Origin: Planctomycetota bacterium
Lineage (GTDB): Bacteria; Planctomycetota; Phycisphaerae; Phycisphaerales; UBA1924
NCBI GenBank assembly: GCA_024276195.1
Contig: JAJRXR010000086.1
Location: 1 to 61,555 of the forward strand
DNA length: 61,555 nt
Reading direction: 5' to 3'
The notes beneath the pieces were generated by a model. The model was not told where the DNA came from. It saw nothing but the letters and a program-made list of their open reading frames with translations, and did no database searches. Shown here in pieces: positions 11,246 to 49,178 of this stretch. Both the position numbers and the translations under genes were made by a program. Position 1 is the first letter of the stretch; each line of letters begins with the position of its first letter.

Positions 11246-11386
11246 CTACACCGTCGCCTTCGCCTCATCCAGCACCCGCTCGGCGTACTTGGTCATCGCG
11301 CCGAGCCAGAAAATCGCCGCAGCGATCAGCCCGCCGCCAAGGACGAAGCGGATGATCCGGTCGATCGAGCCTTCGTTGGGTTTCAT
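11246..11386 (-). pseudogene. Chimeric ORF: DUF2892 N-terminus joined in frame to the phhA C-terminus
   Basis: 46 codons. The first 31 are the DUF2892 start (MKPNEGSIDRIIRFVLGGGL, ending WLGAM), and the rest is TKYAERVLDEAKATV, matching the end of phenylalanine hydroxylase (AMTKYAERVLDEAKAAV). The switch lies at CGCGATG, 7 nt present in both parents. The stop is TAG where intact phhA has TGA. The ORF keeps a start, an upstream AAGGAG-like site and one hydrophobic helix, so it could be translated, but it is a recombination product rather than a normal gene. Confidence 0.85.
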
Positions 11387-12174
11387 GGTGAGTCTCCTTG
11401 TGAGGAGCGTGATTCTAGACTGGCGCCGAAGCCGCACTCGGGGCAAGTGGGGGTGTCGGCGAGGTCGTAGGCGCATTGGGGGCAGAGGCCGCGCCGGTCT
11501 CTGAACCGTCGTCGAAGCCCTCGGTGTGTAGCACGGGTACCAGAGACAAGCCCCCACCAAGTGGCAGCGAAAACCAACGAGTTCACGAAGAGACCACGCC
11601 AGATCGGCATCATTGGCACTTCATCATCCAGGACAGGGAGGGCTGGCGACCAGCCGAGCCGTTCGACAGGACCGGCGTTGCGATACCTAAAGCTCGGGTC
11701 GTCGAGAGTCCACACTTGGGCCTTCAGTGCGCGAAGCGGCAGTCCTGTCGCGTAGACATCCACCTCGCGAGAGATGGTGACGTCTGGTTCAACGGGGGCC
11801 GTATTGTTGATCGGAATCGGAGAGTGCTGGAGCGTCACTCCATCGGTTAGCGCCAACCGTAGTTCGGTCGATGCCCAAAACGGGATCTGTGCGGTGGGGA
11901 ACGCGCGTCTTTTCATCGCAAGTGGATCGAAAGTTGATGAATGGAAGCGTGAGTTCGATAAGCTGCAACGGGTGAACGCAGGTGAATAGGCGATGCCACC
12001 CCTGATCTCGTCATCCCGCTGAAACTCACGGTTGAATATCTGTATACCACCGAAAGCGAGCCACGAACCAACGGCAACCAGGTAAGTGGTCAGAACGCCG
12101 AGCAAGAGGTAAATGGCTGCTCGTGCCATGTAGCCAGTAGAGTTGCGAGAGAGAAGTCGCATCGTGCTCGGCAC
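11383..12174 (-). CDS. Zinc-ribbon membrane protein, copy 1
   Basis: 263 residues if the GTG directly behind the phhA stop is used; an ATG 12 nt later is the alternative. N-terminal helix (AAIYLLLGVLTTYLVAVGSWLAF), extracytoplasmic middle, second helix (GLFVNSLVFAATWWGLVS), Arg-rich stretch and the ribbon CPQCAYDL...CPECGFG. The tail is nearly identical to copy 2 (ending LESRSSQGDSP against LESRSSQGNSP), while the remaining 220 residues show no obvious alignment. It probably entered behind phhA as a cassette. Confidence 0.8.
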   Translation of the reverse strand: MPSTMRLLSRNSTGYMARAAIYLLLGVLTTYLVAVGSWLAFGGIQIFNREFQRDDEIRGGIAYSPAFTRCSLSNSRFHSSTFDPLAMKRRAFPTAQIPFWASTELRLALTDGVTLQHSPIPINNTAPVEPDVTISREVDVYATGLPLRALKAQVWTLDDPSFRYRNAGPVERLGWSPALPVLDDEVPMMPIWRGLFVNSLVFAATWWGLVSGTRATHRGLRRRFRDRRGLCPQCAYDLADTPTCPECGFGASLESRSSQGDSP

Positions 12175-13080
12175 TCACACCGCCGCCTTCGCCTCGTCCA
12201 GCACCCGCTCGGCGTACTTGGTCATCGCGTCCCGCAGCTGCTCGAAGCTCTCGAGCACGTACAGGATCGGCTGGTACTTGTCGATCTCGAACGTCGTCTC
12301 GCAGACGCGCTCCAGATCGAACGGGCGGCGTTCGACCTGGCCCTTGCCGGTTCCTTCGGGGGCTTCGAGGCAGTGCTTGGCCTCGCCGTGGCTCGAGACG
12401 AGTCCCGAGCCGTAGATCTTGAGGCGGTTGTCTTCCTTGATGAGCCCGAACTCGACGGTGAACCAGAAGAGGCGGGCGAGGCGTTCGATGTGCTTCGCGT
12501 CGTCGGTGTGCAGCGCGGCCTTGCCGTAGGTCTGCAGGAAGTCGGCAAAAACCGGGTCGGCGTGCAGGGGTACATGCCCGAAGACATCGTGGAAGATGTC
12601 CGGCTCGGGCAGGTAGTCCATTTTTTCGCGCGGGCGGATGATGACGGTCGTGGGGAACTCACGCTGCGCCAGGCACGCGAAGAACGCCTTGGCGGGCAGA
12701 TACCCCGGCACCCCCCGGCTCTGCCACCCCGTCAGCGGGCGCAGATACTCGTTGATGCCCTTGATCGTCTTGCCCGGGTCGTTCGGGTCGGGCTGCTCGC
12801 CAAAGAGCATCGGGACGCGATCGGAGACCAGGCGGATCGCCCTGAGCCCGTCGATAAAGGTGTTCGAGGCCTGTTGCTCGAGCACCTCCCAGCGCTGCTC
12901 GTACATCTCCTTCCAGACCGCGTGGTTCTCAGCGGTGTACCGGTCGTACATCTGGGTGACGTAGAAGCCCTCGGTCACGATCTGGTCGGCGGATTGGCCC
13001 TCGGTCGCGTCCGCCGCAGCCTGGGCGCGGTCGAAATCGGCGCCGTCGATGATGTTGTTGTAGCTGATGTCCTTGCGCAC
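12175..13080 (-). CDS. phhA: Phenylalanine 4-hydroxylase
   Basis: 301 residues. GTG start with AAGGAGG 8 nt upstream. It is a bacterial pterin-dependent monooxygenase converting phenylalanine to tyrosine with tetrahydrobiopterin and O2. The non-haem iron site is visible: His164 and His169 in DIFHDVFGHVPL, and Glu210 in FTVEFGL. The pterin-loop region and SSHGEAKHC are also present. The last 18 codons are duplicated downstream in the chimeric ORF (two differences besides the stop codon). It transcribes away from the DUF2470-like gene, which lies upstream in the same direction about 95 nt away. Confidence 0.95.
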   Translation of the reverse strand: MRKDISYNNIIDGADFDRAQAAADATEGQSADQIVTEGFYVTQMYDRYTAENHAVWKEMYEQRWEVLEQQASNTFIDGLRAIRLVSDRVPMLFGEQPDPNDPGKTIKGINEYLRPLTGWQSRGVPGYLPAKAFFACLAQREFPTTVIIRPREKMDYLPEPDIFHDVFGHVPLHADPVFADFLQTYGKAALHTDDAKHIERLARLFWFTVEFGLIKEDNRLKIYGSGLVSSHGEAKHCLEAPEGTGKGQVERRPFDLERVCETTFEIDKYQPILYVLESFEQLRDAMTKYAERVLDEAKAAV

Positions 13081-13174
13081 GGGCCGCCTCCTTGCCTGGT
13101 GGCGTTGGGGCCATCTGGATCTTCCAGTCCAGTATACGAGCGCCGCAGCGTGACGGTTGAAGCGAGATTCTCGC

Positions 13175-13810
13175 TCAGGCGCCCCGGAGCAGGGCCTCTA
13201 TCGTCCTCGCGATCGCGTCGGCGTCCTCCCCGGGCGACTCGAACTCGCCCCGGATCACGCCCACGCCCCCGCGCACGTCGAACCCGCAGGGGTCGCACGC
13301 CACCGCGAGCGGCTCGTCCACATCAAGACCGGTCAGGGCGAGCACGCCCTTTCGCAGTGCCGCGCGGTCGGCGTTGAGCAGGCGGAGCAGGCGCCCCTCG
13401 TCGGCGCGGATCGGGTTGGGCGCCATGAGATCCTCGCCGGGCATCACGCTGTCGCTTGTTCGGGCGGTCTCGATGCGCGCCCTGGCCCAGCGCCCCAGCG
13501 AGCGCCGCCCGTGGGCCGCGATGAAGCGGTCGCACACAAACGCGGTCTCGGGGTCGATCTCTTCGAGCGAGAGCAGCAGTTGCAGCGAGGTGTCCGCGGC
13601 GCCGGGCAGCTCCTCCTCGGGCACATGCAGCACCGATTGCGACGCGCCAAGCTCCGCGGGCGTCAGCTCGAGAATGAGCGAGCCGTCGGCGGGGTCGATG
13701 ATGAATCGCCGGCGATGGACGGCGCCGTCGGTGTCGAGCGCGCCCTCGCGGTACTGGCGCAGCGTCCGCTGCGCTCGGTCGATCGCGGGATGGTCAGTCT
13801 CCTGGCTCAT
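13175..13810 (-). CDS. Protein resembling PNPOx-fold/DUF2470 haem-utilisation proteins
   Basis: 211 residues, no signal peptide. N-terminal HPAIDRAQRTLRQY and a beta-rich middle recall the pyridoxamine-5'-phosphate oxidase-like fold. The C-terminal part (LRLLNADRAALRKGVLALTG, DPCGFDVRGGVGVIRGEF) looks like DUF2470 found in HugZ/HutZ-like proteins and in stand-alone pyridoxamine-oxidase relatives. The haem-binding His of that family is not evident. The family call is moderate and the function unknown. Confidence 0.6.
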   Translation of the reverse strand: MSQETDHPAIDRAQRTLRQYREGALDTDGAVHRRRFIIDPADGSLILELTPAELGASQSVLHVPEEELPGAADTSLQLLLSLEEIDPETAFVCDRFIAAHGRRSLGRWARARIETARTSDSVMPGEDLMAPNPIRADEGRLLRLLNADRAALRKGVLALTGLDVDEPLAVACDPCGFDVRGGVGVIRGEFESPGEDADAIARTIEALLRGA

Positions 13811-13870
13811 ACCCAAGTGTGGGGGCGCCGGGGAGCCGGGGCAAGCGGGTGAGGGGTGTGGACCTCTAAA

Positions 13871-13902
13871 AAGGGCACGGGGCCGGCGCTGTGGCCGGCC
13901 CC
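13871..13902 (-). terminator. Rho-independent terminator of the H1-like gene
   Basis: GGGGCCGG and CCGGCCCC (13879-13886 and 13895-13902) form a perfect 8-bp stem with an 8-nt loop. On the minus strand it is followed after GTGCCC by a run of T. It lies about 60 nt past the stop of the lysine-rich gene. Confidence 0.75.
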
Positions 13903-13964
13903 GAAAGTCAACGATGTTCCGCAGACGGGTCCGTGGACCCGACCGGAGATAAAGAGCGCCCGCC

Positions 13965-14342
13965 TTAGCGGCGGGTCGCACGCCTCCGTGCCTTCTTGCG
14001 GGTGGCCTTCTTGCGGGTGGCCTTCTTGCGGGTGGCCTTCTTGCGAGTGGCCTTCTTGCGGGTGGCCTTCTTGCGAGTGGCCTTCTTGCGGGTGGCCTTC
14101 TTGCGGGTGGCCTTCTTGCGAGTGGCCTTCTTGCGGGTGGCCTTCTTGCGGGTGGCCTTCTTGCGAGTCGCCTTCTTACGGGTGGCCTTCTTACGGGTCT
14201 TCTTGCGAGTCGCCTTCTTGCGAGTCGCTTTCTTACGGGTGGCCTTCTTACGGGTGGCCTTCTTGCGGGTCTTCTTGCGAGTGGCCTTCTTGCGAGTCGC
14301 TTTCTTGCGGCTCGCTTTCTTTCGGGTCTTCTTCTTCGCCAT
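13965..14342 (-). CDS. Lysine/arginine-rich histone H1-like DNA-binding protein
   Basis: 125 residues, nearly all K, R, A and T: MAKKKTRKKASRKK, then about 20 repeats of the pentad KKATR, with two shortened to KKTR. GAGGAG precedes the ATG. Such tails are like the C-terminal domain of histone H1 and bacterial counterparts (AlgP, chlamydial Hc2, planctomycete and myxobacterial H1-like proteins). They condense DNA or tune nucleoid structure. No globular domain is attached, so it is a stand-alone tail. The gene is a 15-bp tandem repeat and is expected to vary in length between strains. Confidence 0.88.
   Translation of the reverse strand: MAKKKTRKKASRKKATRKKATRKKTRKKATRKKATRKKATRKKATRKKTRKKATRKKATRKKATRKKATRKKATRKKATRKKATRKKATRKKATRKKATRKKATRKKATRKKATRKKARRRATRR
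13985..14330. repeat. 15-bp coding tandem repeat (KKATR units)
   Basis: On the plus strand the unit reads GGTGGCCTTCTTGCG with small variants (GGTGGCC/AGTGGCC/AGTCGCC, TTGCG/TTACG). About 20 units plus two 12-bp ones make up almost the whole H1-like gene. Both length classes are multiples of three, so slippage would change protein length and not frame. Confidence 0.9.
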
Positions 14343-14917
14343 GGTGTGGTCTCCTCGGTTGGGTACCAGTGTTGGTCGGTCTCAATCAGAACATCGTGGA
14401 AGTGCCCGTCACAACAAACCGTATCGGTATCTGTTTACACACCGCTTGAGTCAAGCGGGCTGATCTTGCGCGGATCGTTGATCAACATGACGATCACCAT
14501 ACCGAGATCAACCAGCGTGTGCAGCGCACAGGGCGTGCTGGCGCGTGCATGAGGCGCGGTGTGACAGCGCCGATCTGCGCGATGCGCATCGCCAACGCGC
14601 TCGGCGTTCGCGCTCTCACGAACACATGCGCGACTGAATCGGACGCGCCGCGACCGGGCGCGCCGGGTGTGTTGGCGCGCAGACACACCCGGCGCGGTTC
14701 TTGCGCACGATTGCGGGTTTCGTGTGAGATCGCGTGTGTTGCGCGTGTGTTCGGGGCAGTTGCGTCGTGTTTGTTGCGCGCAGTTGGGCGCCGTTGGCGT
14801 CGAGATCATGTCTGAGAGCGCCCAATCGGCATAACCGACAGGCTCGCGCATCGACGTGTGTCGTTCCTAGACTGCGCCCAGATCAGATGCTGATTCGGAA
14901 CAGATCAAGGAGTGATG
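14343..14917. other. Intergenic region with strong CG/GCGCG bias, no convincing gene
   Basis: 575 nt between the H1-like gene and the M16 gene, which are divergent. No ORF here has a coding look. The stretch 14550-14820 is unusually rich in GCGC, GTGT and CGCG steps. It contains a perfect 14-bp inverted repeat at 14659-14672/14683-14696 (arm CGCGCCGGGTGTGT, loop TGGCGCGCAG). No T tract follows, so it is not a simple terminator. A structured leader RNA or protein-binding region is possible. Confidence 0.6.
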
Positions 14918-16156
14918 ATGACCGAACCGACACGACGAGACCTGGCCTGCGGCGTCCCGCTCATTGTGGAAAACATCCCCGCCATGCGCTCGGCGGGCCT
15001 CTGCTGGCTTCTGCCCGCCGGCTCCGTGACCGACGAGCCCAACACTCTCGGACGCTCGCAGGTGATGTCCGAGCTGCTCATGCGCGGCGCCGGCGACCTG
15101 GATTCTCGCTCGCAGGCCGACGCCTTTGACCGCCTGGGCGCCGCCCGGAGCTCGAGCTCGGGCACGACGCACCTGCGACTGAGCGTCGCGTGCCTGGGCG
15201 CCAAGCTGGGCGAAACGCTGCCATTGCTCGTGGATATGGTCCGAAAGCCTGCGCTCACCGACGACGCGCTCGCGCCCACGAAAGACCTCGCCATCCAGGC
15301 GATCGAGTCGCTCGGCGATGACCCGCAAGAGCGATGCGTGCTCGGCGCCCGCGCCAGGCACTACCCGGCGCCCTTCGACCGCTCCGGGCTCGGCACACCC
15401 GAGGGCATCGCCTCGCTCACCAGCGAAAGCGTCCGCAAGGCGTGGACGAGCCTGGGCAGGCCCGGCGGGTCGATCATCACCGCCGCGGGCGATGTGGACG
15501 CAAGCGAGCTGGGCGATCGCCTTGATTCGCTCCTCGATGGCTGGTCCGGGCAGGGCGGCTCGTACACCATCTCGGGCGAGGCGCCCCGCGGCTACGCCCA
15601 CGAAAATGACGACTCGAACCAGGTTCAGATCCTCGTCGTGCATGACGCTCCGCCCGAGCCGCACGAGGATTCCATTCTTGAGCGGGTCGTTGTGAGCGTG
15701 CTCTCGGGCGGGATGTCCGGGCGCCTGTTCACCGAGGTGCGCGAGAAACGCGGGCTGTGCTACTCCGTCAGCGCCGGCTACCGGGCGGACAAAGAGTTCG
15801 CGGGCGTCTCGGCTTACGTCGGCACCACCCCCGAACACGCCCAGGAAGCGCTCGACGTACTCCTGGGCGAGCTCGACCGGATCGCCGCGGGCATCGACCA
15901 GAGCGAGCTCGACCGGACCAGGGTCGGGATGAAGTCTCGCCTGGTCTTCGGGGGCGAGTCCACCGGCGCCCGGGCCTCGGCCCTGGCCGGCGACATGCGC
16001 GTCCTCGGGCGGGCCAGGTCCATGACCGAACTCACCGAGCGGATCGACGGCGTCACGCTCGACCGCGTCAACGACTACCTCAAGCGGCGCACGCCCGGGC
16101 GGATGACGATCCAGACCGTCGGGCCGGAGGCCCTGCGCCCGCCCGCCGGCGTGTGA
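14918..16156 (+). CDS. M16 (pitrilysin) family peptidase homologue, zinc site lost
   Basis: 412 residues. Of three adjacent start codons the ATG 5 nt after AAGGAG is preferred. It has the two-domain M16 layout and keeps the C-terminal-half motif SGRLFTEVREKRGLCYSVSAGY. In the N-terminal half the segment that should read GxxHxxEH is GRSQVMSELLMRG, so both zinc histidines and the catalytic Glu are replaced (Ser47, Met50, Ser51). Non-catalytic M16 subunits normally pair with an active partner, as in mitochondrial processing peptidase and bacterial M16B pairs. No active M16 gene is present in this window. Confidence 0.88.
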   Translation: MTEPTRRDLACGVPLIVENIPAMRSAGLCWLLPAGSVTDEPNTLGRSQVMSELLMRGAGDLDSRSQADAFDRLGAARSSSSGTTHLRLSVACLGAKLGETLPLLVDMVRKPALTDDALAPTKDLAIQAIESLGDDPQERCVLGARARHYPAPFDRSGLGTPEGIASLTSESVRKAWTSLGRPGGSIITAAGDVDASELGDRLDSLLDGWSGQGGSYTISGEAPRGYAHENDDSNQVQILVVHDAPPEPHEDSILERVVVSVLSGGMSGRLFTEVREKRGLCYSVSAGYRADKEFAGVSAYVGTTPEHAQEALDVLLGELDRIAAGIDQSELDRTRVGMKSRLVFGGESTGARASALAGDMRVLGRARSMTELTERIDGVTLDRVNDYLKRRTPGRMTIQTVGPEALRPPAGV

Positions 16157-16257
16157 TTCCGACCCGCACGGACGCCCCGACGCCGGTACGATGCTCCCGC
16201 TCGGTCTCGGGGGTGTTTCCCGCGATCGTGGTCGGGAACGAGTCAGGCGAGATTGTC

Positions 16258-17052
16258 ATGTCAAGCACCGGCGTCAAGCCCGCTCCCGTCGCGATCGAGA
16301 TCGAGGACTCCGCCGTCGCCGGCGCCTCGTCGGCCGAGTTTCTCGCCGACCTCTACGCCGGCCTCGGATCGCACCGAAACGACTTCCGAAACCTCAACCT
16401 CCACCGCCTGATCGCCTCGCTGGTCCGGGGTGAAAGCGTGCTGGACATCGGGTGCGGGTCGGCGACATTGCTGACCATCCTCCGCCGGCGCGGGCACACC
16501 GTCTTCGGGCTCGAACCCAACGAGGCGCTCGTCAAGAACGCCAACGCCCGGGATACCGAGCTGAAGGTCTTCCACGGCACGGGCGAGTCCGTGAACACCC
16601 TCGGGCTCCGGTTTGAGACCATCACCATTATCGACGTGCTCGAGCACATCGAAGACGACCGGAGCCAGCTCGCGCGGATCCACGCCGCCCTGGCGCCCGG
16701 TGGGCAGTTGATCGTCCTCGTGCCAGCCTTCCAGGCGCTGTACGGCAAGCGCGACCTGCGCAACGGGCACTACCGCCGGTACTCGCGCAAGGAGCTGGTG
16801 GGCAAGATGCAAGACGCCGGCTTCAGTATTGATTCTTCTCGACACTGGAACGCGCTCGGGTTTGTGCCGTACTGGTTCTCCGAGCGGGTGCTCAGGCGCG
16901 AGCTCAACGGCGATATCCGCACCGACAAGGCCAAGAGCTGGCCCACGCGCCTGGTCATCCGCGCCCTGCACGCCTGGTACCGCAAGCTCGAGAACAACAT
17001 CAGCCTCGGGTTTGGGCTGAGCCTCATCGTCACCGCGACCAGGCAGGACTAA
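16258..17052 (+). CDS. Class I SAM-dependent methyltransferase
   Basis: 264 residues. Motif I is VLDIGCGSATLL, followed by the acidic VFGLEPNE; motif IV is IIDVLEHIEDDRSQL and post-motif LAPGGQLIVLVPAF. After this comes ALYGKRDLRNGHYRRYSRKEL, a wording common in Methyltransf_11/23 enzymes acting on lipid- or glycan-linked substrates. A hydrophobic C-terminal segment (NNISLGFGLSLIVTA) could give weak membrane association. Substrate unknown. It follows the M16 gene by about 100 nt. Confidence 0.85.
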   Translation: MSSTGVKPAPVAIEIEDSAVAGASSAEFLADLYAGLGSHRNDFRNLNLHRLIASLVRGESVLDIGCGSATLLTILRRRGHTVFGLEPNEALVKNANARDTELKVFHGTGESVNTLGLRFETITIIDVLEHIEDDRSQLARIHAALAPGGQLIVLVPAFQALYGKRDLRNGHYRRYSRKELVGKMQDAGFSIDSSRHWNALGFVPYWFSERVLRRELNGDIRTDKAKSWPTRLVIRALHAWYRKLENNISLGFGLSLIVTATRQD

Positions 17053-17119
17053 GAGCCGGGCTCGGTCCGCCACCGGTCCCCGGGGGGAGCGCCCTTGCCT
17101 CTCCGGCTACACTCGCCCC

Positions 17120-18883
17120 ATGTCCCTGCCCGTTGCCCGACGAACCTGGAGCTACTCGCTGCTCGCGGCGCTGCTGTTGCTGCTCGCCGCGACCCTGCTC
17201 TACCCGATCTACCTCACCGTCCGCGGCGGGTTGGCCCAGGATGTCGCGACCGGGCGAGGCTTCACGCTCGAGCACCTCAGGCTGGTCTTCGAGGATCCGC
17301 TCCAGGTCCGGGCGTTGCTCTCGTCCCTGAAGATCGCGCTGATCACGACGATGCTGTGCATCGCGGTCGCGCTGCCCCTGGCGATGCTCTCGGCGAACTA
17401 TCGGTATCCGGGCAAGACCTTTCTCAACGCCGCCATTCTCGTCCCGCTGATCCTGCCCCCGTTCGTCGGCGCCATCGGCGTCAAAATGCTCCTCGGGCGC
17501 GAGGGCTCGCTCAACACCCTGCTGGGCACGGACTGGGACGTGCTCGGATCCGCCCGATTCTGGGGGGTCGTGGTGGTTCAGGCGCTCCACCTCTATCCCA
17601 TTATCTATCTCAACGCGACGGCATCGCTGGCCAACCTCGACCCCGCGCTCGATGAATCCGCCGAGAACCTCGGCGCCGGGCCTTGGAGGCGGTTCTTCAA
17701 GATCACCCTCCCGCTGATCCGCCCGGGGTTGTTTGCGGGCGGGACGATCGTGTTCATCTGGAGCTTCACGGAGCTGGGCACGCCGCTGATGTTTGATTAC
17801 AAGCTCGTGACGTCCGTGCAGATTTTCGAGAAGCTCAAGGAGGTCGAGAACTCGGGCGAGCCGTACGCCCTGACGCTGGTGCTGCTCACCAGCGCGATTG
17901 GGGCGTACATCCTGGGTAAGTTCGTGTTCGGGCGGCGTGGGTACGAGATGTATTCCAAGGCCTCGCGCTCGTCGGGCGTGGAGACGCTCACGGGCTGGCG
18001 GGGCTTGCTCGCGGGCGGCGCCTTCGGGCTTGTGACAGTTCTGGCGCTGCTGCCGCACGCGGGCGTCGTGCTCACGAGCATCACCCAGCCCGGGAGCTGG
18101 TACAAGTCCGTCTTCCCCGAGTCGATCACGGGCTCTCACTTCGCCGAGGCCCTGACCAGTGACCTCGCGTTCAGCTCGATCAAAAACTCGCTGATGCTCA
18201 GCCTCAGCGCTGTTCTGCTCAGCGCCTTCTTCGGCATCCTGATCGCGTACATCATCGTGCGGACCACGGTCAAGGGGCGGGCGCTGCTCGATGCGCTGTG
18301 CATGCTCCCGCTGGCGGTGCCGGGGCTGGTGATGGCGTTCGGGTATGTCGCCGTCACGCTGACGTGGCCCTTCGAGGGGACGCTGCGGATCTTCGGGCAA
18401 GAGTTCGTGGCCCCGCTGGACGGGTCGTGGCTGGATCTGGAGGTGTTCGGGTCGAACCCGAACCCGTTCCCGCTGCTGATTATCGCGTACGCCGTGCGCC
18501 GATTGCCGTACATCGTCCGCTCGACCGTCGCGGGCCTGGAGCAGACCTCGGGCGAGCTTGAAGATGCAGCCGTGAACCTGGGCGCGTCGCGCGTGATGGC
18601 GGTGCGCAAGGTCATCATCCCGCTGATCATGGCCAACCTGATCGCGGGGAGCCTGCTGGTGTTCAGCTTCTCGATGCTCGAGGTTTCGGACTCGCTGATC
18701 CTGGCGCAGCGGAGCGTCCACTTCCCGATCACGAAGGCGATTTTCGAGTTCTCGAACCGCCTGGGGGATGGGCCGTACATCGCCAGCGCGATGGGCGTCT
18801 GGGGGATGGGGTTGCTGACCGTCACGCTGTTCGGGGCGTCGATGCTGCTGGGCAAGAAGCTGGGGTCGATCTTCAGGGTGTAA
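17120..18883 (+). CDS. Iron(III)-type ABC transporter permease, two fused permease domains
   Basis: 587 residues with about 12 helices and two BPD_transp_1 domains. The EAA-like loops are ESAENLGAGPWRRFFKITLPLIRPGL (first half) and EDAAVNLGASRVMAVRKVIIPLIMANL (second half). This fused arrangement is that of FbpB/AfuB/SfuB iron permeases and of some phosphonate or thiamine importers. The matching ATPase and binding protein are not adjacent, so the substrate is uncertain. The pdxA gene starts 34 nt downstream and may share the transcript. Confidence 0.88.
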   Translation: MSLPVARRTWSYSLLAALLLLLAATLLYPIYLTVRGGLAQDVATGRGFTLEHLRLVFEDPLQVRALLSSLKIALITTMLCIAVALPLAMLSANYRYPGKTFLNAAILVPLILPPFVGAIGVKMLLGREGSLNTLLGTDWDVLGSARFWGVVVVQALHLYPIIYLNATASLANLDPALDESAENLGAGPWRRFFKITLPLIRPGLFAGGTIVFIWSFTELGTPLMFDYKLVTSVQIFEKLKEVENSGEPYALTLVLLTSAIGAYILGKFVFGRRGYEMYSKASRSSGVETLTGWRGLLAGGAFGLVTVLALLPHAGVVLTSITQPGSWYKSVFPESITGSHFAEALTSDLAFSSIKNSLMLSLSAVLLSAFFGILIAYIIVRTTVKGRALLDALCMLPLAVPGLVMAFGYVAVTLTWPFEGTLRIFGQEFVAPLDGSWLDLEVFGSNPNPFPLLIIAYAVRRLPYIVRSTVAGLEQTSGELEDAAVNLGASRVMAVRKVIIPLIMANLIAGSLLVFSFSMLEVSDSLILAQRSVHFPITKAIFEFSNRLGDGPYIASAMGVWGMGLLTVTLFGASMLLGKKLGSIFRV

Positions 18884-18917
18884 TCGGGGAGGCGCGCGCG
18901 CCGGATATCATCCCCCA

Positions 18918-23067: not shown

Positions 23068-23082
23068 CAGCACGGGGACGTT

Positions 23083-36106: not shown

Positions 36107-36628
36107 ATGTATCAGATTGACGAGAAGGATCGGGTATCTGAGTTGGTTGGCATTCCGCAATCTTCTGTTGGTGCCCCGATGCCGATCATCGTTGCGGAAG
36201 AGGGGGCGGTTGCTGTTGCCTACTACCTGCAACAACAGCAACCGGACTGGGATGGGACAGCGGTCCGCATCGTTGACCACAACGGCACCGATGAGCCGGT
36301 GGCCATTGCCTACTTCTCACTTTGTAAGGCTTATTACTCAGGCTCTCCGAACGATGAGGCGTTCAGCGGGCACCCATTGGCGAGCCGAGGGCTTGAACCG
36401 TACGGGGCGTTCGAGGTGCATGAATCGTCTTGGATTCGGGAGATGGAGCGGCGAAATTCGGTTCATCCGAGCCACCGAGGCAGGTGGTTGGAGTATCTGC
36501 GGCACTTTGTGCTGGCGTTTCATGACAGCGTCTTCGAGTGTGTCGCGAAAGATCTCGATGTGACGAGACACCAGGGCAGCGTCTCGGACGCGGTTCCTAT
36601 CATGACCGAGCGATTGTTCTCTCGGTAA
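36107..36628 (+). CDS. Accessory gene of unknown function (cassette beyond the rnr relic)
   Basis: 173 residues, no signal peptide and no recognised domain. The N-terminal part is moderately hydrophobic (MPIIVAEEGAVAVAYYLQQQ), then VRIVDHNGTDEPVAIAYFSLCKAYYSGSPNDEAF. A Trp/His-rich middle follows (HPSHRGRWLEYLRHFVLAFHDSVFECVAKDL). Codon use is much more A/T-rich than in the core genes, suggesting transfer. It starts 6 nt after the BtuF-like stop and converges on the relic of the rnr 3' end, which begins 3 nt past its stop. Confidence 0.75.
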   Translation: MYQIDEKDRVSELVGIPQSSVGAPMPIIVAEEGAVAVAYYLQQQQPDWDGTAVRIVDHNGTDEPVAIAYFSLCKAYYSGSPNDEAFSGHPLASRGLEPYGAFEVHESSWIREMERRNSVHPSHRGRWLEYLRHFVLAFHDSVFECVAKDLDVTRHQGSVSDAVPIMTERLFSR

Positions 36629-36631: not shown

Positions 36632-36730
36632 TCACTGCCTCTTCCCCTTGTCCTTGCGGTCTTTCCGATGGTCCGCCTTGCCCTTGTCGCGTGACTTGAC
36701 TTAACGCGACCGGCTCTGCAACCAAGGCGC
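36632..36730 (-). pseudogene. Relic: duplicate of the 3' end of rnr
   Basis: Read on the minus strand it encodes SRDKGKADHRKDRKDKGKRQ and a TGA stop, exactly the last 20 residues of the intact RNase R gene 1.3 kb away. Within those codons every difference is synonymous (CGC for CGG, GGG for GGA, CAG for CAA), and the stop is TGA instead of TAG. Upstream of that the match weakens (an in-frame TAA appears) and fades near 36730. No start codon or promoter, so it is a fragment. Confidence 0.9.
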
Positions 36731-36957: not shown

Positions 36958-37794
36958 ATGCGTACCGCCGCACTCACCGCGCTGCTCGTGACCGCTTCCG
37001 CCGCCCAGGCCCAGCCCTTCGGGTCTCTCGTCGCTCGCATGATCGACTCGGAGTACACCATCAGCCGGTTCGTGCAGCTCGCTCCCGACAGCGCGCCAGT
37101 CGTTCGCACACGAGGCGGCGCCCGAGGAGGCAGCGCAAGTTTCAACGCGGACGCGACCGCATCGTCCTACGGCGGGTTCTTCCCCTTCAACCTCGACACC
37201 TTCACCTTTGACAGCCTGATCACCGCAGACCTCGAGGCCCACGTTGGCTTCTCGTCCCTCAACCAGCTCTCCGGCTCCTGCGTCGCCTACCGCTTCGCAT
37301 GGATCGAGGTCCATCGTCCCATCCGATACCGGATTACAGGGGAGATTCAGTCAGATCTGACGCTGACTGATGGCTGGGGATCGGCACAGGTCTTTGTCGA
37401 GATTGTCCCCGAGGTCGGGAACACCGTCGTGCGCGCTGAAGCCAGCGGCGACGAAGGCGTCCAAGTGCTGGAACTCGAAGGTGTGCTGACGCCGTTCGGC
37501 GGTCTGGAGTGGTTCTTCATCACGTTCGAGGCGTCGGCCAGCCTCACCTCGCCCGCCCTTGCGGGCCAGGGCGCCCGGGCGCTGGCGAACGTGAGCATCG
37601 AGCTGCTCCCGATGGGGTGCACCACCGCCGACCTGGCGCTCCCCTACGGCGAGCTCAACTCGAGCGACATCGTCGAGTTTCTCGGGGCCTGGACCGATCG
37701 CGAGCCCATCGCCGACTACGAAGCGCCCGAAGGCGAGTTCGACCTCACCGACGTGATGGCGTTCCTGAGCGTGTTCAACGATGGGTGCCCGTGA
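36958..37794 (+). CDS. Secreted protein with C-terminal GC-type dockerin
   Basis: 278 residues. Signal peptide MRTAALTALLVTASAAQAQ; the ATG is preceded by GAGAGGA. About 190 residues of beta-rich mature protein without a known domain follow (FNLDTFTFDSLITADLEAHV; YRITGEIQSDL). The end is the paired calcium-loop-like motif of planctomycete GC-type dockerins: CTTADLALPYGELNSSDIVEFLGAW, then EFDLTDVMAFLSVFNDGCP. These modules probably hold the protein in an extracellular assembly. The gene sits between the two copies of the rnr 3' end. Confidence 0.88.
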   Translation: MRTAALTALLVTASAAQAQPFGSLVARMIDSEYTISRFVQLAPDSAPVVRTRGGARGGSASFNADATASSYGGFFPFNLDTFTFDSLITADLEAHVGFSSLNQLSGSCVAYRFAWIEVHRPIRYRITGEIQSDLTLTDGWGSAQVFVEIVPEVGNTVVRAEASGDEGVQVLELEGVLTPFGGLEWFFITFEASASLTSPALAGQGARALANVSIELLPMGCTTADLALPYGELNSSDIVEFLGAWTDREPIADYEAPEGEFDLTDVMAFLSVFNDGCP

Positions 37795-37855: not shown

Positions 37856-37920
37856 GAGCCGGGAGCGCAAGCGACCAGGGGCTGTCACGAAACTCCCTGG
37901 GTCGCTTGCGCTCCCGGCTC
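37856..37920. repeat. REP-like inverted repeat, 21-bp perfect arms
   Basis: Arms 37856-37876 and 37900-37920 (core GAGCCGGGAGCGCAAGCGAC and complement) enclose a 23-nt loop that extends the pairing with one bulge. CGTTTTCG follows on the plus strand, so it could end transcripts from both the dockerin gene and, in reverse, rnr. It borders the intact rnr 3' end. Confidence 0.88.
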
Positions 37921-37932
37921 CGTTTTCGCCTG

Positions 37933-40410
37933 CTATTGCCTCTTTCCCTTGTCCTTCCGGTCTTTCCGATGGTCCGCCTTGCCCTTGTCGCGTGACTTGC
38001 TCTTGCGCGACCGGCGCTGCGAACCCGGCGTCTTCATCGAGCCGAACCCCGCGCCCGCGGACCCGCCCATGCCGCCTGCGCCCTCGCCGCCGATGTTGAG
38101 CCCGCCGACCTTCTTCGCCTTGCCCGCTGCCCGCGAATCACCATCGCTGATCGCCAGGTCCAGCTTCCGCTGCGCCAGGTCCACGCCCGCGATGTAGACC
38201 TTGACCCGGTCGCCGATGTTGTAGCTGCGCCCCGAGTTCGCATCGACCATTCCCCCGGTCCGGTCGTCAAGGAACCACTTGGGAGGCTTGTTCGAGCGCG
38301 TCGTGTCGCCCGGCAGATCCCCCTTGGCGATCATCCCGTCGGCCAGATACTTCTCAAGCTGCACAAACACGCCCCGCGCGATCACGCCCGTGATGATGCC
38401 CTTGAACTCTTCCCCGATGTGCTCGCTCAAGAGCTGGAGCACCAGGAACTGGCGCAGCTCCCGCTCGGCGCTCTCGGCATTCTGCTCCGTCCCGGAACAG
38501 TGGCGCCCGACCGTCAGCAGGTCCGTCTCGCTCGGCAGGATCTCGCGCAGCGTGCGCCCGAGCGCCTTCTTGTCGGGCTCGCTCTTGGGGCGGTCGGCGC
38601 CGTTGTTCGTTTTCTTGAGATATTCCAGCAGCGCCCGGTGGACCGTCAGGTCCGGGTAGCGCCGGATGGGGCTGGTGAAGTGCGCGTACGCCGCCGACGC
38701 CAGCGCATAGTGCCCGATGAGCGCGGGCGAGTATTCCGCCTTGGTCAGCGTGCGCAGCACCGCCATGTGCACGGGCCACGCCGCGGGCGTCCCGCTCGTC
38801 GCGTCGAGCAGCGCCTGGAGCTGCTCGCGGTCCGGGTTCTGCGGGATGGTGAACCCCGCGATCTTGGCCGACTTGCGCATGTCGTCCACGCTGCCCGGCA
38901 CCGGCTCCGGGTGGACCCGCCTTAGCAGCGGCACGCCCAGCTCCTCGAACAGCTTCGCCAGCGACTCGTTCGCCTCGACCATGAACATCTCGATGATCGT
39001 GTGCGTGAAGGCGTCGTCCTCCTCCACCGCGTCGATCACCCGCCCGTCCTCGTCAAACACCAGATCCACATCCGGCAGATCCAGGTTGATCATCCCCGCC
39101 TTGCGCCGCCGATCCCGGATCACCCGCGCCAGCGTGTCCATCTCCTTGACGGTCGCGACCAGCTCGTCGGTGTACGCCGTCTCGGTTTTGGCGTGCTTGC
39201 GCGCCTCGTCCGGGTCGCCATCGATCAGCGCCTGCGCTTCGAGATACGTCATCCGCTTGCGGCTCTTGATCAGCGAACTGCAGAACCCCCGCGACGTGAC
39301 GCTGCCCTTGCGGTCGTACCGGATGATCGCCGTCTTGGCGAACCGGGGCACGCCCTCCTGCAACGAGCAGATCCCGTTGGACAGCACCTCGGGCAGCATC
39401 GGGATCACCAGCCTCGGCAGATAACAACTGTTCCCCCGCTCGTACCCTTCCAGATCCAGCGCCGTGCCCGGCTCAATAAACGAACTCACGTCCGCGATGT
39501 GGATCCCCAGCTCCCACCCCTTGTCCGTGCGCTTGATGCTGATCGCGTCGTCGTAGTCCTTCGCGTCGGGCGGGTCGATGGTGCAGATAAACTCGCCCGT
39601 CAGGTCCGACCGGAGCTCGAGCGCCGCCTCGCCGCGCTCCTCCCACGCCTTGACCGCCTGGTCGAAGTCGCGCGTCGCCTGCCTGGCCTGCTCGACGCAC
39701 GCCTCGGGGAACGAATCCGGCTCGGGCAGCGAGTACGCCGCGATGATCGCCTGCGTCTCGACGCTCGGGTCGCCCGCCTCGCCGAGCACCTTGACGATCA
39801 CGCCCTCGCCCAGCGCCCCGCCCTCGGGGTACTCGATCAGCTCGATGACGACCTTGTCGCCCGCCTTGACGTTTTTGCTCGCCGCGTCGCGCAGGATCAC
39901 GGGGTTGCGCAGCTCCTTACCGTCCGGGTGGAGCATCCAGCGCGAGCCCTGCTGGTACACCTCGCCCGCGAAGCTCGCCCGCTTGCGCTGGGTGATCTCG
40001 AGCACCTCGCCGGCGAAGCTCTTGCCGAACCCGCCGCCAAACTTCTCACGCCTCCGGTCGCGCCGGTAGGCGATGCGCACGGTGTCGCCCGAGAGCGCCC
40101 CGAGCGTGAGATGCTCGGGGATGAAGATGTCGCCGTCGGTGGTTTTGAGCTCGGGCACGACAAACCCGAACCCCTTGGCCGTGCCCCGGAACTCGCCGAC
40201 GATCTCGCCCTCGTCGGGCATCCCGGGCAGCGTGACCCGGTCGCCCGAGCCGATCGCGATCGTCCCCCGCTCGGCCAGCTCGTCGATCGCTCTCGCAAAG
40301 TCGGCGACGTCATCCACGCCCAGCTCCTGGGCCAGCGCGTCCACGGGTTTCGGCTCATAGCTCTCGTGAGCCAGGTGCCTCAAAAGGCGCTTCTCGTAGC
40401 GCAGCGGCAT
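37933..40410 (-). CDS. rnr: Ribonuclease R
   Basis: 825 residues from the ATG of MPLRYEKRLLRHL. An N-terminal winged-helix region is followed by cold-shock domains (GEIVGEFRGTAKGFGFVVPE). The RNB catalytic domain has the four-Asp magnesium site in DPPDAKDYDDAIS, plus HIADVSSFIEPGTALDLEGYERG and HFTSPIRRYPDLTVHRAL. An S1 domain (GVIARGVFVQLEKYLADGM) and a Gly-rich then strongly basic tail (RRSRKSKSRDKGK...KGKRQ) come last. It is a processive 3'-5' exoribonuclease that degrades structured RNA. Its 3' end is copied at 36632-36730 behind the dockerin gene. Confidence 0.95.
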   Translation of the reverse strand: MPLRYEKRLLRHLAHESYEPKPVDALAQELGVDDVADFARAIDELAERGTIAIGSGDRVTLPGMPDEGEIVGEFRGTAKGFGFVVPELKTTDGDIFIPEHLTLGALSGDTVRIAYRRDRRREKFGGGFGKSFAGEVLEITQRKRASFAGEVYQQGSRWMLHPDGKELRNPVILRDAASKNVKAGDKVVIELIEYPEGGALGEGVIVKVLGEAGDPSVETQAIIAAYSLPEPDSFPEACVEQARQATRDFDQAVKAWEERGEAALELRSDLTGEFICTIDPPDAKDYDDAISIKRTDKGWELGIHIADVSSFIEPGTALDLEGYERGNSCYLPRLVIPMLPEVLSNGICSLQEGVPRFAKTAIIRYDRKGSVTSRGFCSSLIKSRKRMTYLEAQALIDGDPDEARKHAKTETAYTDELVATVKEMDTLARVIRDRRRKAGMINLDLPDVDLVFDEDGRVIDAVEEDDAFTHTIIEMFMVEANESLAKLFEELGVPLLRRVHPEPVPGSVDDMRKSAKIAGFTIPQNPDREQLQALLDATSGTPAAWPVHMAVLRTLTKAEYSPALIGHYALASAAYAHFTSPIRRYPDLTVHRALLEYLKKTNNGADRPKSEPDKKALGRTLREILPSETDLLTVGRHCSGTEQNAESAERELRQFLVLQLLSEHIGEEFKGIITGVIARGVFVQLEKYLADGMIAKGDLPGDTTRSNKPPKWFLDDRTGGMVDANSGRSYNIGDRVKVYIAGVDLAQRKLDLAISDGDSRAAGKAKKVGGLNIGGEGAGGMGGSAGAGFGSMKTPGSQRRSRKSKSRDKGKADHRKDRKDKGKRQ

Positions 40411-40467
40411 GGCATCCCTTCCAGCACACGCCCGCTCTTCGAGCAGCACGCGATGCAAACATATTTC

Positions 40468-47427: not shown

Positions 47428-48423
47428 GTGCGCGCCGTTCGATACGACGGACAACACGTCCTGCTCGACCCGCGAGCCCCCGCGCCCGAGCCCAAGGCGG
47501 GCGAAGCAATCGTTCGCCCGATCCGCGTCGCCCTCGGCCCCATCGAACGCCTGATCTGCCAGGGCCAGACCAGCTTCAAAGGCGTCATCGGGCGCGAGAT
47601 GGTCGGTGTTGTCGAGCGCGTCGAGGGCCAGCCCGGGCACGAACTCGTCGGCGCTCGCGTCGTCTGCGATCCCATCGACGCCCCGCTCGATTCTGACCTC
47701 GCCCGGCGCGGCATGAGCTGGCACGCGCCCGACCGACGCGAGCTGGGCGTCTGCGGACGCGACGGGTGCCTCGCCGAACAGGTCTGCGTCCCGCTCGTGA
47801 GCCTGCGCCGCGTGCCCGACGCGATCGATAACGACCACGCCGTGCTGTGTGTTGCGCTGTCCGAGGCGCTCCGCCTGGCCGGGCTCGTCACGGTCGAGAA
47901 CAAGCCGTACGTCAGCGTCGTCGGCGACGACGCGGTCGCGCTGCTGTGCGCACAGGTGCTGTTCTCACGCAACGCCTCGGTGCGCGTGCTCGGGCGCGCG
48001 CCCGAGCGCTCCCTGCGCTGCGAGAAGTGGGGGATCAGGCGCCGGTGCGTCTCGGAGGCCGGGCGCCTGGGCGATCAGGACGTCGTGCTCGTTGTTGACC
48101 CCACCGATGACTCGCTCGAGGTCGCGGCGGGCCTCGTCCGCCCGGGCGGGAAGGTCGTGATCGGGGGCGGCGTCTCCGGCGCCACCGGGGTCAACCACGC
48201 CGAATCACCCTCGCTCCCCGTCGCGCGATTCATCGAACGCGAGGCGCGCGTCATCTTTGCCCGCGGTGGCAAGGTCGTCGAAGCCCTCGGCGCCCTCTCG
48301 ACCAACGCCGGCGCGCTCGACCTCGCCAGCCTCATCACACGGCGCGCCCGCTTTGACGATTCCATCGCAGCCATCCGCGCCTCGGACAGCGTTGACCAGC
48401 TCAAGGTCGTCATCGACCTCTGA
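47428..48423 (+). CDS. Medium-chain dehydrogenase/reductase (alcohol/threonine dehydrogenase-like)
   Basis: 331 residues from a GTG with GGAGG upstream. N-terminal GroES-like part (KAGEAIVRPIRVALGPIERLICQG; GREMVGVVERVE, where most members have GHE). Then AEQVCVPLVSLRRVPD and a Rossmann part (VSVVGDDAVALLCAQVL; VVLVVDPTDDSLEVAAGLVRPGG). The glycine motif is degenerate (VVGDDAV in place of GxGxxG), and the structural-zinc cysteines are mostly absent, so activity is uncertain. Its last 69 codons and stop are duplicated behind the next gene at 95% identity. Confidence 0.82.
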   Translation: MRAVRYDGQHVLLDPRAPAPEPKAGEAIVRPIRVALGPIERLICQGQTSFKGVIGREMVGVVERVEGQPGHELVGARVVCDPIDAPLDSDLARRGMSWHAPDRRELGVCGRDGCLAEQVCVPLVSLRRVPDAIDNDHAVLCVALSEALRLAGLVTVENKPYVSVVGDDAVALLCAQVLFSRNASVRVLGRAPERSLRCEKWGIRRRCVSEAGRLGDQDVVLVVDPTDDSLEVAAGLVRPGGKVVIGGGVSGATGVNHAESPSLPVARFIEREARVIFARGGKVVEALGALSTNAGALDLASLITRRARFDDSIAAIRASDSVDQLKVVIDL

Positions 48424-48458
48424 ATGTTTCGGGACGCTCGTGCGGGTATGCTCCGGGC

Positions 48459-48968
48459 ATGAGCGATTCCCGACCCGCACCATCGAACGGCCTCGGCATC
48501 GCCGGGTTCATCGTTTCTCTTGTCGGGCTCGTCCTCTGCCTGGGCCTGATCAGCCCGATCGGGCTTCTGCTCTCGTTCATCGCGCTGTTCAAGCGCCCCC
48601 GCGGCTTCGCGATCGCTGGTTTCATCATTGGGCTCATCGGATCGGCATGGATCATCCTGGCAGGTGTTGTGATTTTCAGTATGGGCGCCGGGGTTATAGC
48701 ACTCGGAGCGAGCGGATTTGCGATCGCTGGCGATGTTATGAAAATCAACGAGGCGATCAGGTTGCACCACAGCTCGAACGGCGTGCTGCCCGCCGATCTC
48801 AGCGTGCTCCAGCTCGATCAGGAGACGCTGACTGATCCGTGGGGGACGTACTACAGGCTTGAGGTCGATCCTGATGGGCGCCACTACACGATCAGCACCG
48901 CCGGTCGCGACATGGTCTGGGATACCAACGATGATCTTACATTCGACCGAAACGTTCTCGGGCCGTAG
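48459..48968 (+). CDS. DUF4190-type membrane protein with a GspG-like C-terminal domain
   Basis: 169 residues. The first 75 are a two-helix DUF4190-like module (GLGIAGFIVSLVGLVLCLG; GFAIAGFIIGLIGSAWIILAG). After a third hydrophobic stretch the tail (INEAIRLHHSSNGVLPADLS; LTDPWGTYYRLEVDPDGRHY; GRDMVWDTNDDLTFD) follows the major-pseudopilin GspG pattern (DPWGxxY...D.DG...ST.G.D...TDDD). It is a cassette gene: its stop TAG is directly joined to the relic of the preceding gene's 3' end. Confidence 0.8.
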   Translation: MSDSRPAPSNGLGIAGFIVSLVGLVLCLGLISPIGLLLSFIALFKRPRGFAIAGFIIGLIGSAWIILAGVVIFSMGAGVIALGASGFAIAGDVMKINEAIRLHHSSNGVLPADLSVLQLDQETLTDPWGTYYRLEVDPDGRHYTISTAGRDMVWDTNDDLTFDRNVLGP

Positions 48969-49178
48969 CTCCCCGTCGCGCGCTTCATCGAACGCGAGGC
49001 GCGCGTCATCTTTGCCCGCGGGGGCAAGGTCATCGAAGCCCTCGGCGCCCTCTCGACCAACGCCGGCGCGCTCGACCTCGCCAGCCTCATCACACGTCGC
49101 GCCCGCTTTGACGATTCCATCGCGGCCATCCGCGCCTCGGATAGCACCGACCAGCTCAAGGTCATCATCGACCTCTGA
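48969..49178 (+). pseudogene. Relic: duplicate of the MDR dehydrogenase 3' end
   Basis: 210 nt aligned without gaps to 48214-48423; I count 10 mismatches in 8 codons. Five of these are synonymous and three conservative (Val to Ile twice, Val to Thr). The frame and TGA stop are intact, but there is no start. The lack of frameshifts or nonsense changes suggests both copies were coding while they diverged. This points to import of an allele from a relative rather than decay of a local duplicate. Confidence 0.93.

What the first reader, a model, noticed from the sequence alone, without database searches (positions are those of the whole stretch)
11246..49178. Proposed general process: core genes collect accessory cassettes by recapturing their own 3' ends
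Three unrelated core genes in one 61-kb window (phhA, rnr, MDR) are each followed by accessory gene, copy of the core gene's 3' end, accessory gene. No integrase, transposase or att site is visible. The cassettes encode short membrane, zinc-ribbon or secreted proteins with A/T-richer codon use. The core gene always stays intact, because the incoming DNA restores the reading frame. It resembles stacking of displaced tips in polymorphic-toxin loci, but here ordinary metabolic genes serve as anchors. I know of no description of this, though I cannot search.
Basis: inference. Interest (0 to 1): 0.85.

Follow-up and report, generated by a model that had tools for sequence, protein, structure and literature searches.

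The report
Accessory genes stacked behind housekeeping genes
In one uncultured planctomycete genome, extra genes of unknown function pile up behind ordinary housekeeping genes, each addition leaving a stray copy of the housekeeping gene's last stretch, which fits DNA taken in from a sister strain without any transposon or integrase.

Summary
phhA, rnr and an MDR-type dehydrogenase each have a displaced copy of their own 3' end (53, 89 and 211 nt; 96, 90 and 95% identical) in direct orientation beyond an accessory gene. A 40% sample of the same genome holds more: uvrC (two tails, three accessory genes) and a beta-CASP nuclease (two tails, two FG-GAP genes). Core end and tail differ mostly like two functional alleles, while the accessory genes differ far more, so in-place duplication is unlikely. 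Best reading: a fragment [core 3' end + accessory gene] from a strain about 5% diverged was added by one homologous exchange in the core gene plus one illegitimate joint. This resembles additive single-crossover integration seen in E. coli and arrays proposed for Vibrio T6SS, but with housekeeping anchors. Generality is not shown: 2 hits among 1,070 3' ends in three other genomes and 80 named loci, both at one locus and one of them a probable case. Outside the window the 3' bias rests on 3 genes (p = 0.13).

The parts
12175..13080 (-). phhA (Biopterin_H), intact anchor gene; its last 53 nt or so are repeated downstream
   Evidence: Pfam PF00351 E 3.9e-55; 90% identical orthologue in G003
11383..12174 (-). 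accessory zinc-ribbon membrane protein ZnR1 between phhA and the displaced tail (ORF; start not verified)
   Evidence: ORF; 31% identical to ZnR2
11294..11386 (-). first 31 codons of a YgaP-like gene, fused to the phhA tail through the shared 7 nt CGCGATG (11294-11300)
   Evidence: sequence; pair with 10380-10583 at 94.6%
11246..11300 (-). displaced phhA 3' tail with stop codon
   Evidence: 96.2% over 53 nt; codon comparison
10469..11233 (-). accessory zinc-ribbon membrane protein ZnR2 (ORF; start not verified)
10251..10472 (-). complete YgaP-like gene (PF11127), downstream neighbour
   Evidence: Pfam E 7.5e-20 on the longer ORF 10251-10745; one copy in the G002 locus
37933..40458 (-). rnr (RNase R), intact anchor gene
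   Evidence: Pfam RNB E 9.2e-98
36958..37794 (+). accessory secreted-type protein gene, convergent with rnr; its last 58 residues match those of the FG-GAP proteins
   Evidence: no Pfam match; absent from the rnr 3' side in G001 and G002
36632..36723 (-). displaced rnr 3' tail; its 5' edge is decayed, with an in-frame stop
   Evidence: 89.9% over 89 nt; alignment
36107..36628 (+). second accessory gene at the rnr locus, no Pfam match
   Evidence: absent from the locus in G001 and G002
47428..48423 (+). MDR-type dehydrogenase (ADH_N), intact anchor gene
   Evidence: Pfam E 3.8e-7; 82% identical orthologue in G002
48459..48968 (+). accessory membrane protein acc1, ancestral at this place in the genus
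   Evidence: DNA similarity behind MDR in G001, G002 and G003
48968..49178 (+). displaced MDR 3' tail; begins at the last base of the acc1 stop codon and ends with the MDR stop codon
   Evidence: 95.3% over 211 nt; a second MDR match appears in G000 only, of 61 genomes
49232..49696 (+). accessory small membrane protein acc2, orphan
   Evidence: no relative among 5.77e9 proteins except itself; low-confidence model: two helices then six strands, pLDDT 59.7

Best explanation
Each site is an additive import of sister-strain DNA. A fragment carrying the 3' end of a housekeeping gene plus the accessory gene behind it arrives from a conspecific about 5% diverged. One homologous exchange inside the core gene's 3' coding sequence ties it in. 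The other junction is illegitimate and lies behind the accessory gene: either the fragment circularised first and integrated by a single crossover, or its free end joined by homology-facilitated illegitimate recombination. The product is an intact core gene, accessory gene, truncated core tail, other accessory gene. Repeats at one locus stack further units. Shown: the duplications, intact cores, sharp loss of similarity at the core stop codon, absence of the extra units in congeners where that DNA is held, mostly allele-like tails, no integrase among the proteins scanned. Inferred: donor, uptake route, RecA dependence, order of events.
For: Tails and core ends are 90-97% identical (91% for the outer nuclease tail) while the accessory genes between them are unrelated or far more diverged (31% and 70% protein identity at the two loci where they are related). 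Differences in four tails: 10 synonymous vs 6 nonsynonymous codons against 0.249 expected synonymous under no constraint, p = 0.0016. The MDR core end and tail are equally distant from three congeners (78.5/78.0, 81.4/81.0, 66.7/66.2%), so that tail did not decay in place. Congeners lack the extra units: MDR 3 of 3, rnr 2 of 2 with the flank held, nuclease in G002. In a 40% sample: 6 of 800 3' ends vs 0 of 778 5' ends, p = 0.017. Stacking: uvrC tails of 57 and 18 nt, nuclease tails of 149 and 78 nt. The phhA joint shows 7 nt shared by both parents. Joints at MDR, uvrC (2) and the nuclease (2) begin -1, 1, 22, 58 and 21 nt past the accessory stop codon; at phhA 82 nt past it, inside YgaP; at rnr some 230 nt upstream of the opposed secreted gene (my arithmetic on coordinates). 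ComEC and DprA families are present. In PMC3240628 (passages), 56 of 60 E. coli Lac- clones gave the PCR product of a partial duplication of the homologous end (109-950 bp, 14 sequenced), explained by recircularisation and single crossover.
Against: One metagenome-assembled genome, no reads. Outside the window, where nothing was picked in advance, the 3' vs 5' contrast is 3 of 754 vs 0 of 733, p = 0.13. Against duplication plus one-sided decay the codon test gives only p = 0.057. At uvrC the core end is closer to congeners than its tail is (96.5 vs 91.2%; 93.0 vs 87.7%), and the 5' edge of the rnr tail is decayed, which also fits decay there. Microhomology could be judged at one joint only; in PMC3240628 itself 3 of 4 E. 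coli illegitimate joints had none. At MDR the retained inner gene is the ancestral one, so the newest unit is not always nearest the core. No donor haplotype was found. Breadth sampling in relatives is almost empty, and 5'-type repeats do occur elsewhere (G001 L165; a 52-nt pair touching a 5' end in L240).
Confidence: 0.66

Rival explanations
1. In-place tandem duplication of [core 3' end + accessory gene], followed by divergence of one accessory copy.
For: Explains direct repeats; at phhA and at the nuclease the two accessory genes are related (31% and 70% protein identity); at uvrC the tail is farther from congeners than the core end.
Against: Divergence would be even along the unit, but tails are 90-97% identical and the accessory genes show no similarity at MDR, rnr or among the three at uvrC. 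MDR tail and core end are equally distant from congeners.
Confidence: 0.13
2. Assembly artefact: two co-occurring strains with different genes behind the core gene were joined end to end.
For: Source is a MAG; four contig-end pairs overlap at 95-99% identity (898, 417, 357, 221 nt), so strain variants are present. Several accessory-tail joints lie where a strain-specific path would end (inference). The fused YgaP-phhA peptide is known from this contig only.
Against: Nine contig-end pairs share exactly 141 nt, the mark of a de Bruijn graph with k = 141 and no scaffolding (assembler inferred from recalled knowledge); such a graph should not join at a few shared bases unless reads span the joint. 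The seven joints printed hold no N. The pattern recurs at five core genes on three contigs, on 3' and in this genome never on 5' ends.
Confidence: 0.14
3. Site-specific integration: a tyrosine recombinase uses the core 3' end as attachment site, as e14 uses icd (recalled), and the recombinase gene has been lost or acts from elsewhere.
For: 3' ends of genes are classic attachment sites; attachment duplication leaves the gene intact (recalled).
Against: No recombinase among 28 proteins scanned. Tail length differs between units at one gene (57 vs 18 nt; 149 vs 78 nt) and among genes (53-211 nt for the first tails).
Confidence: 0.04
4. Chance and selection of a striking window: isolated duplications of no common origin.
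For: 3 of 46 genes in the window vs 3 of 754 outside (p = 0.003) shows how far the window stands out; outside it the bias is not significant (p = 0.13).
Against: BLAST E-values 1e-17 to 1e-92; further cases found without prior choice at uvrC and the nuclease; 0 of 800 inverted controls.
Confidence: 0.03

Closest known systems
Partial duplication by recircularised fragment + single crossover in E. coli conjugation (Amarir-Bouhram et al. 2011, PMC3240628; passages read)
   Same: Direct partial duplication of the homologous end (109-950 bp in that work; 53-211 nt in this window) flanking non-homologous DNA.
   Different: Laboratory construct at lacZ; here natural, at several housekeeping genes, with the core gene left intact and accessory genes carried.
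Homology-facilitated illegitimate recombination in competent bacteria (introduction of the same paper, passages)
   Same: One homologous end, one illegitimate end; 3-10 bp microhomology reported in most cases, 7 nt seen at phhA.
   Different: Typical products carry a deletion of similar size; none is visible at MDR, where the congeners' acc1 and next gene are both kept.
Immunity-gene arrays in Vibrio cholerae T6SS clusters (Kirchberger et al. 2017, PMC5361080; passages read)
   Same: Successive additions push older 3' ends and genes downstream; the authors propose (with a 'perhaps') homology-facilitated illegitimate recombination.
   Different: Anchors here are phhA, rnr, an MDR dehydrogenase, uvrC and a beta-CASP nuclease, not effectors; no toxin or immunity gene recognised.
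Neisseria minimal mobile elements (recalled; search listing only)
   Same: Alternative gene cargo between conserved genes, exchanged by homology without mobility genes.
   Different: There cargo is replaced; here it is added and a core tail is left behind.
e14/phage 21 at icd (recalled)
   Same: A core gene's 3' end is duplicated and its frame restored by the incoming DNA.
   Different: Integrase-driven with one attachment site.

Membership tests
Additive single-crossover integration of a recircularised fragment | Direct partial duplication of the homologous anchor flanking the insert | tested here: met
Additive single-crossover integration of a recircularised fragment | Duplicate stems from donor DNA, not from in-place copying | tested here: inconclusive
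   For: equal distance of MDR core end and tail to three congeners, synonymous excess p = 0.0016. Against or weak: p = 0.057 against one-sided decay, uvrC tail farther than its core end (all)
Additive single-crossover integration of a recircularised fragment | RecA dependence | not testable with these tools
   Needs a cultured strain
Homology-facilitated illegitimate recombination | 3-10 bp microhomology at the illegitimate joint | tested here: inconclusive
   7 nt at phhA; parental sequences missing elsewhere
Homology-facilitated illegitimate recombination | Insertion coupled with a deletion of similar size | tested here: not met
   At MDR, acc1 and the next gene of all three congeners are kept; other loci not judged
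Neisseria-type minimal mobile element | Different cargo between the same conserved genes in different strains | tested here: inconclusive
   Shown between species (uvrC: different genes in G000, G001, G002; rnr); strains not available
V. cholerae T6SS effector/immunity array | Anchor is a T6SS effector with cognate immunity genes | tested here: not met
   Anchors are housekeeping genes; Pfam shows no effector domain in the 28 proteins scanned
Integrase-mediated island at a gene 3' end | Recombinase gene in the element | tested here: not met
   None in 18 window proteins or 10 from the uvrC, nuclease and manC loci
Integrase-mediated island at a gene 3' end | Attachment site of fixed length and sequence | tested here: not met
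   Tails 18-211 nt, variable within one locus
Integron cassette array | attC sites and IntI | not tested
   No attC or IntI search was run

The most novel reading that the evidence does not exclude
In this population housekeeping-gene 3' ends serve as integrase-free, homology-read attachment sites for a shared pool of small orphan membrane and secreted proteins. Units are gained and lost by recombination between core ends and tails. Stacking is kept because each orphan is useful on its own, for instance as protection against neighbours or phages.
Probability: 0.25. Interest if true: 0.78.

Novelty: new variant of a known kind. Interest (0 to 1): 0.52.

Why it matters
Where strain-specific genes enter a genome without mobile elements is an open question. 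Displaced 3' tails are a fossil record of single additive imports, readable from one assembly: they mark the site, the incoming unit, the divergence of the donor and, where stacked, that several events occurred. If the pattern holds in closed genomes, the tails would make integrase-free gene gain countable. Accessory genes stacked three deep behind uvrC also suggest that such genes are kept by selection.

Tried and rejected
In-place duplication: weakened by the uneven divergence and, at MDR, the equal distances to congeners. Assembly chimera: searched for contig-end overlaps; judged unlikely, not excluded. Independent proof of a joint by searching the fused YgaP-phhA peptide among 5.77e9 proteins: found only in its own contig. 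Homologues of two accessory proteins (MDR acc2, uvrC acc1): none; the others were not searched there. Single-sequence structure models of both were too poor for a fold search (pLDDT 59.7 and 52.7), which I therefore did not run. Rfam scan of 9000-52000: nothing.

Rows set aside in G000: mid-gene upstream hits at L115, L122 and L133; pairs at L181 (secreted-type genes with alike C-termini), L116 (internal repeats), and L113, L115, L122 (intergenic) of the 20 pairs at 85% or more; lower-identity rows. One L122 pair touches a predicted 5' end, but its copy lies downstream and the start is probably predicted too early. At G002 L154 two tandem CRTAC1-like genes share 89% identical 3' ends and were set aside; the 67-nt, 85% copy of the convergent methyltransferase gene's 3' end was kept as one probable case. 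The self-repeat scan had missed that locus, so its lists are not complete. In one search (82% or more) 12 pairs were listed; apart from G000's own uvrC they are internal repeats, intergenic pairs or, once (L240), a 52-nt pair touching a predicted 5' end.

In the short-tail scan the two 'up' controls were faulty (slicing error for genes near a stretch end) and are not used; its output was cut, so the G001 rows were not seen; downstream it listed MDR, the nuclease, uvrC and L181 in G000 (one opposite-strand match there), none in G002 or G056, and two GC-rich matches plus one opposite-strand match in the named loci. The first count on relatives' loci had wrong orientation for some and was replaced.

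Literature: five searches aimed at this pattern or its neighbours and three narrower ones showed no title or abstract start describing housekeeping-anchored stacking; only PMC's open-licence papers are covered. A search for the isolate code OFTM found nothing.
Full report
WHAT WAS CHECKED. 

OBSERVATION. Self-comparison of the window confirms displaced 3' ends of phhA (53 nt, 96.2%), rnr (89 nt, 89.9%) and an MDR-type dehydrogenase (211 nt, 95.3%), all in direct orientation downstream. The cores are open and carry their family domains. Similarity stops at or next to the core stop codon. At MDR the tail begins at the last base of the accessory gene's stop codon. At phhA the joint fuses the first 31 of 73 codons of a YgaP-like gene to the phhA tail through seven shared bases, CGCGATG, present in both parents. 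The duplicated unit there is phhA end + zinc-ribbon gene + start of YgaP. The two zinc-ribbon proteins are only 31% identical overall, although the stretch with their last 37 residues and the following YgaP start is 94.6% identical in DNA.

RELATIVES. In G001, G002 and G003 the MDR gene is followed by a homologue of the first accessory gene and then the next gene; tail and second accessory gene are absent. In G001 and G002 rnr is followed, after about 125 and 15-20 nt, by the next conserved gene; G003's rnr runs off its contig. At phhA, G002 has one zinc-ribbon end and one YgaP-like gene; G003's contig ends too soon, and G001 shows no similar zinc-ribbon gene there. Of 30 loci per gene, a displaced copy within 1.5 kb was found in 1 of 29 (phhA), 1 of 30 (MDR) and 1 of 29 (rnr) with enough sequence, each time G000 itself (one locus each dropped for phhA and rnr for lack of room).

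MORE CASES IN THE SAME GENOME. I took 74 further stretches of G000. With the window that is 1,236,637 bases, of which 33,333 are masked, and 1,031 genes by a codon-usage gene finder of my own (834 of 450 nt or more). A beta-CASP nuclease on contig C39 has two tails (149 nt, 96.6%; 78 nt, 91.0%) alternating with two FG-GAP proteins; G002 has one such gene and no extra tail there. uvrC on contig C64 is followed by three accessory genes; the second is preceded by 57 nt of uvrC's end (94.7%) and the third by the last 16 nt plus two following bases, exact, directly ahead of its start codon. That shortest tail keeps a GGGGAG Shine-Dalgarno-like stretch and the stop codon, which suggests that the core tail can serve as the accessory gene's ribosome-binding site (inference). 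A zinc-ribbon gene array behind manC on contig C62 shows alike ends and unlike bodies.

For each gene of at least 450 nt, the last 250 nt were compared with 4 kb downstream, the first 250 nt with 4 kb upstream, and the middle with both, at 85% identity and 60 bits or more. G000: 3' ends 6 of 800 (phhA, rnr, MDR, nuclease, uvrC and one zinc-ribbon gene of the C62 array, which is not a housekeeping anchor); 5' ends 0 of 778; middle downstream 0 of 800; middle upstream 3 of 778. Inverted 3' copies: 0 of 800. Fisher test 3' vs 5': p = 0.017. Without the window: 3 of 754 vs 0 of 733, p = 0.13. Other samples: G001 0 of 162 3' ends, 1 of 158 5' ends (a pair of prepilin-like genes); G002 2 of 117 3' ends, both at one locus; G056 0 of 241; 80 named loci 0 of 550; no 5' hit in the last three. 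G000 vs these, p = 0.006 with both G002 hits dropped, 0.027 with one kept. The G002 locus has two tandem CRTAC1-like genes with alike 3' ends; just beyond the first lies a 67-nt, 85% copy of the 3' end of the convergent methyltransferase gene, a probable older case in a second species. A separate scan of 87 relatives' loci (376 kb, 385 genes) found no local repeat at 85% or more. One of 110 loci (1.02 Mb, 932 genes; 82% or more) listed 12 pairs, of which only G000's own uvrC locus is a displaced gene 3' end; 80 of these 110 are the named loci above.

ORIGIN OF THE TAILS. Counting codons that differ between core end and tail at MDR, phhA, rnr (last 69 nt) and uvrC gives 10 synonymous and 6 nonsynonymous; 0.249 synonymous would be expected without constraint (p = 0.0016), 0.398 if only the tail decayed (p = 0.057). 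The nuclease tail was left out because of an indel, and the decayed 5' edge of the rnr tail, with an in-frame stop, was left out too. MDR core end and tail are equally far from G002, G003 and G001 (78.5/78.0, 81.4/81.0, 66.7/66.2%). At phhA the core end is slightly closer (90.7/90.4, 92.6/92.3, 95.5/93.2). The rnr tail is closer to G002 than the core end is (86.2 vs 82.6%) and slightly farther from G001 (77.6 vs 78.5%). The uvrC tail is farther than its core end (91.2 vs 96.5, 87.7 vs 93.0) (all). Mostly, then, these look like alleles that diverged while both worked, in strains of one species, and met later in one genome; uvrC is the exception.

IS IT AN ASSEMBLY ARTEFACT. Nine pairs of G000 contig ends share exactly 141 nt, and four overlap at 95-99% identity (the '160-nt' rows are runs of N). 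That is how contigs of a k = 141 de Bruijn graph look when strains co-occur (inference). Such a graph has no scaffolding step that could join sequences at a few bases, so reads should span the joints. Without the reads this stays an inference, and I keep 0.14 for an artefact.

MECHANISM. The structure core-acc-truncated core tail-acc needs one homologous exchange in the core's 3' end and one illegitimate joint behind the accessory gene. Two known routes give it. In E. coli, a fragment trimmed at its homologous end recircularised and integrated by single crossover: 56 of 60 Lac- clones gave the duplication product, 109-950 bp in the 14 sequenced (PMC3240628, passages). Homology-facilitated illegitimate recombination is the other; its usual companion deletion is not seen at MDR, and in that paper 3 of its 4 E. 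coli examples had no homology at the joint. PMC5361080 (passages) proposes it, with a 'perhaps', for V. cholerae T6SS immunity arrays. The ComEC and DprA families are present in G000 and in all 20 relatives searched, as they are in 10 of 14 control genomes each, E. coli included, so uptake by transformation is possible, not shown. The 3' bias then has a plain reading: an addition behind a gene spares its promoter, whereas one in front does not (inference).

THE ACCESSORY GENES. The MDR acc2 and uvrC acc1 proteins have no relative among 5.77 billion proteins (the search needs shared 5-residue words). Rough models show two helices followed or flanked by strands (pLDDT 59.7 and 52.7), which recalls small membrane proteins with a PH-like domain, not more. 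The other two uvrC accessory proteins have no Pfam match and look alike to the eye (two hydrophobic stretches), but show no similarity by BLASTP. GC is 0.54-0.60 for the zinc-ribbon and uvrC and MDR accessory genes and 36107-36628, against 0.65-0.71 for the cores, but 0.65-0.66 for the secreted and FG-GAP ones. Function is unknown; a stack of protective proteins is a guess carried only in the novel case.

VERDICT. A real, recurrent feature of one genome, best read as additive import of sister-strain DNA at housekeeping 3' ends. The mechanism is of a known kind; the anchors, their number in one genome and the stacking are the new part. Generality across the phylum was tested on small samples and not found.

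Noticed in passing
L178 (G000:C64:1-20000) 2416-5788: uvrC followed by three accessory genes, with uvrC tails of 57 and 18 nt between them.
   Followed up: yes
L136 (G000:C39:1-20000) 12776-18079: Beta-CASP nuclease followed by FG-GAP gene, tail, FG-GAP gene, second tail; about 830 nt beyond the last tail hold no predicted gene.
   Followed up: partly
L177 (G000:C62:1-20000) 17419-20000 and L326: Array of three zinc-ribbon membrane protein genes and the start of a fourth between manC and a gene that looks like yqgF (named by eye), with alike ends (93-94% DNA) and unlike bodies.
   Followed up: partly
L154 (G002:C2:12001-32000) 11741-11810 and 13712-13780: Copy of a methyltransferase gene's 3' end beyond a tandem CRTAC1-like gene in a sister species (names by eye).
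   Followed up: partly
L165 (G001:C19:80001-100000) 3110-3343 and 4657-4891: Opposite case: two prepilin-like genes share 95% identical 5' ends and upstream DNA but diverged bodies.
   Followed up: no
window 10144-10243, 36726-36763, 37848-37922: Dispersed intergenic hairpin-like sequence (GAGCCGGG...GCTCCCGGCTCG type) behind several genes; half a copy abuts the rnr tail.
   Followed up: no
window 22954-23075: About 120-nt repeat, 89-92% identical, also on two other contigs (L152, L176), with a weaker relation to L132 and L143 through L176; unidentified.
   Followed up: no
window 13945-14372: Long array of a 15-nt tandem repeat near the gene upstream of phhA.
   Followed up: no
G000 sample, many stretches (L136, L181, L137, L188 and others): 43 other ORFs match the secreted-type protein of the rnr locus at E 0.001 or better; for the two FG-GAP genes the match is the last 58 residues.
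   Followed up: no
L110 1-898 and L175 897-1; L104/L133, L130/L152, L150/window start: Contig ends of G000 that overlap at 95-99% identity over 221-898 nt, a sign of co-occurring strains in the sample.
   Followed up: no
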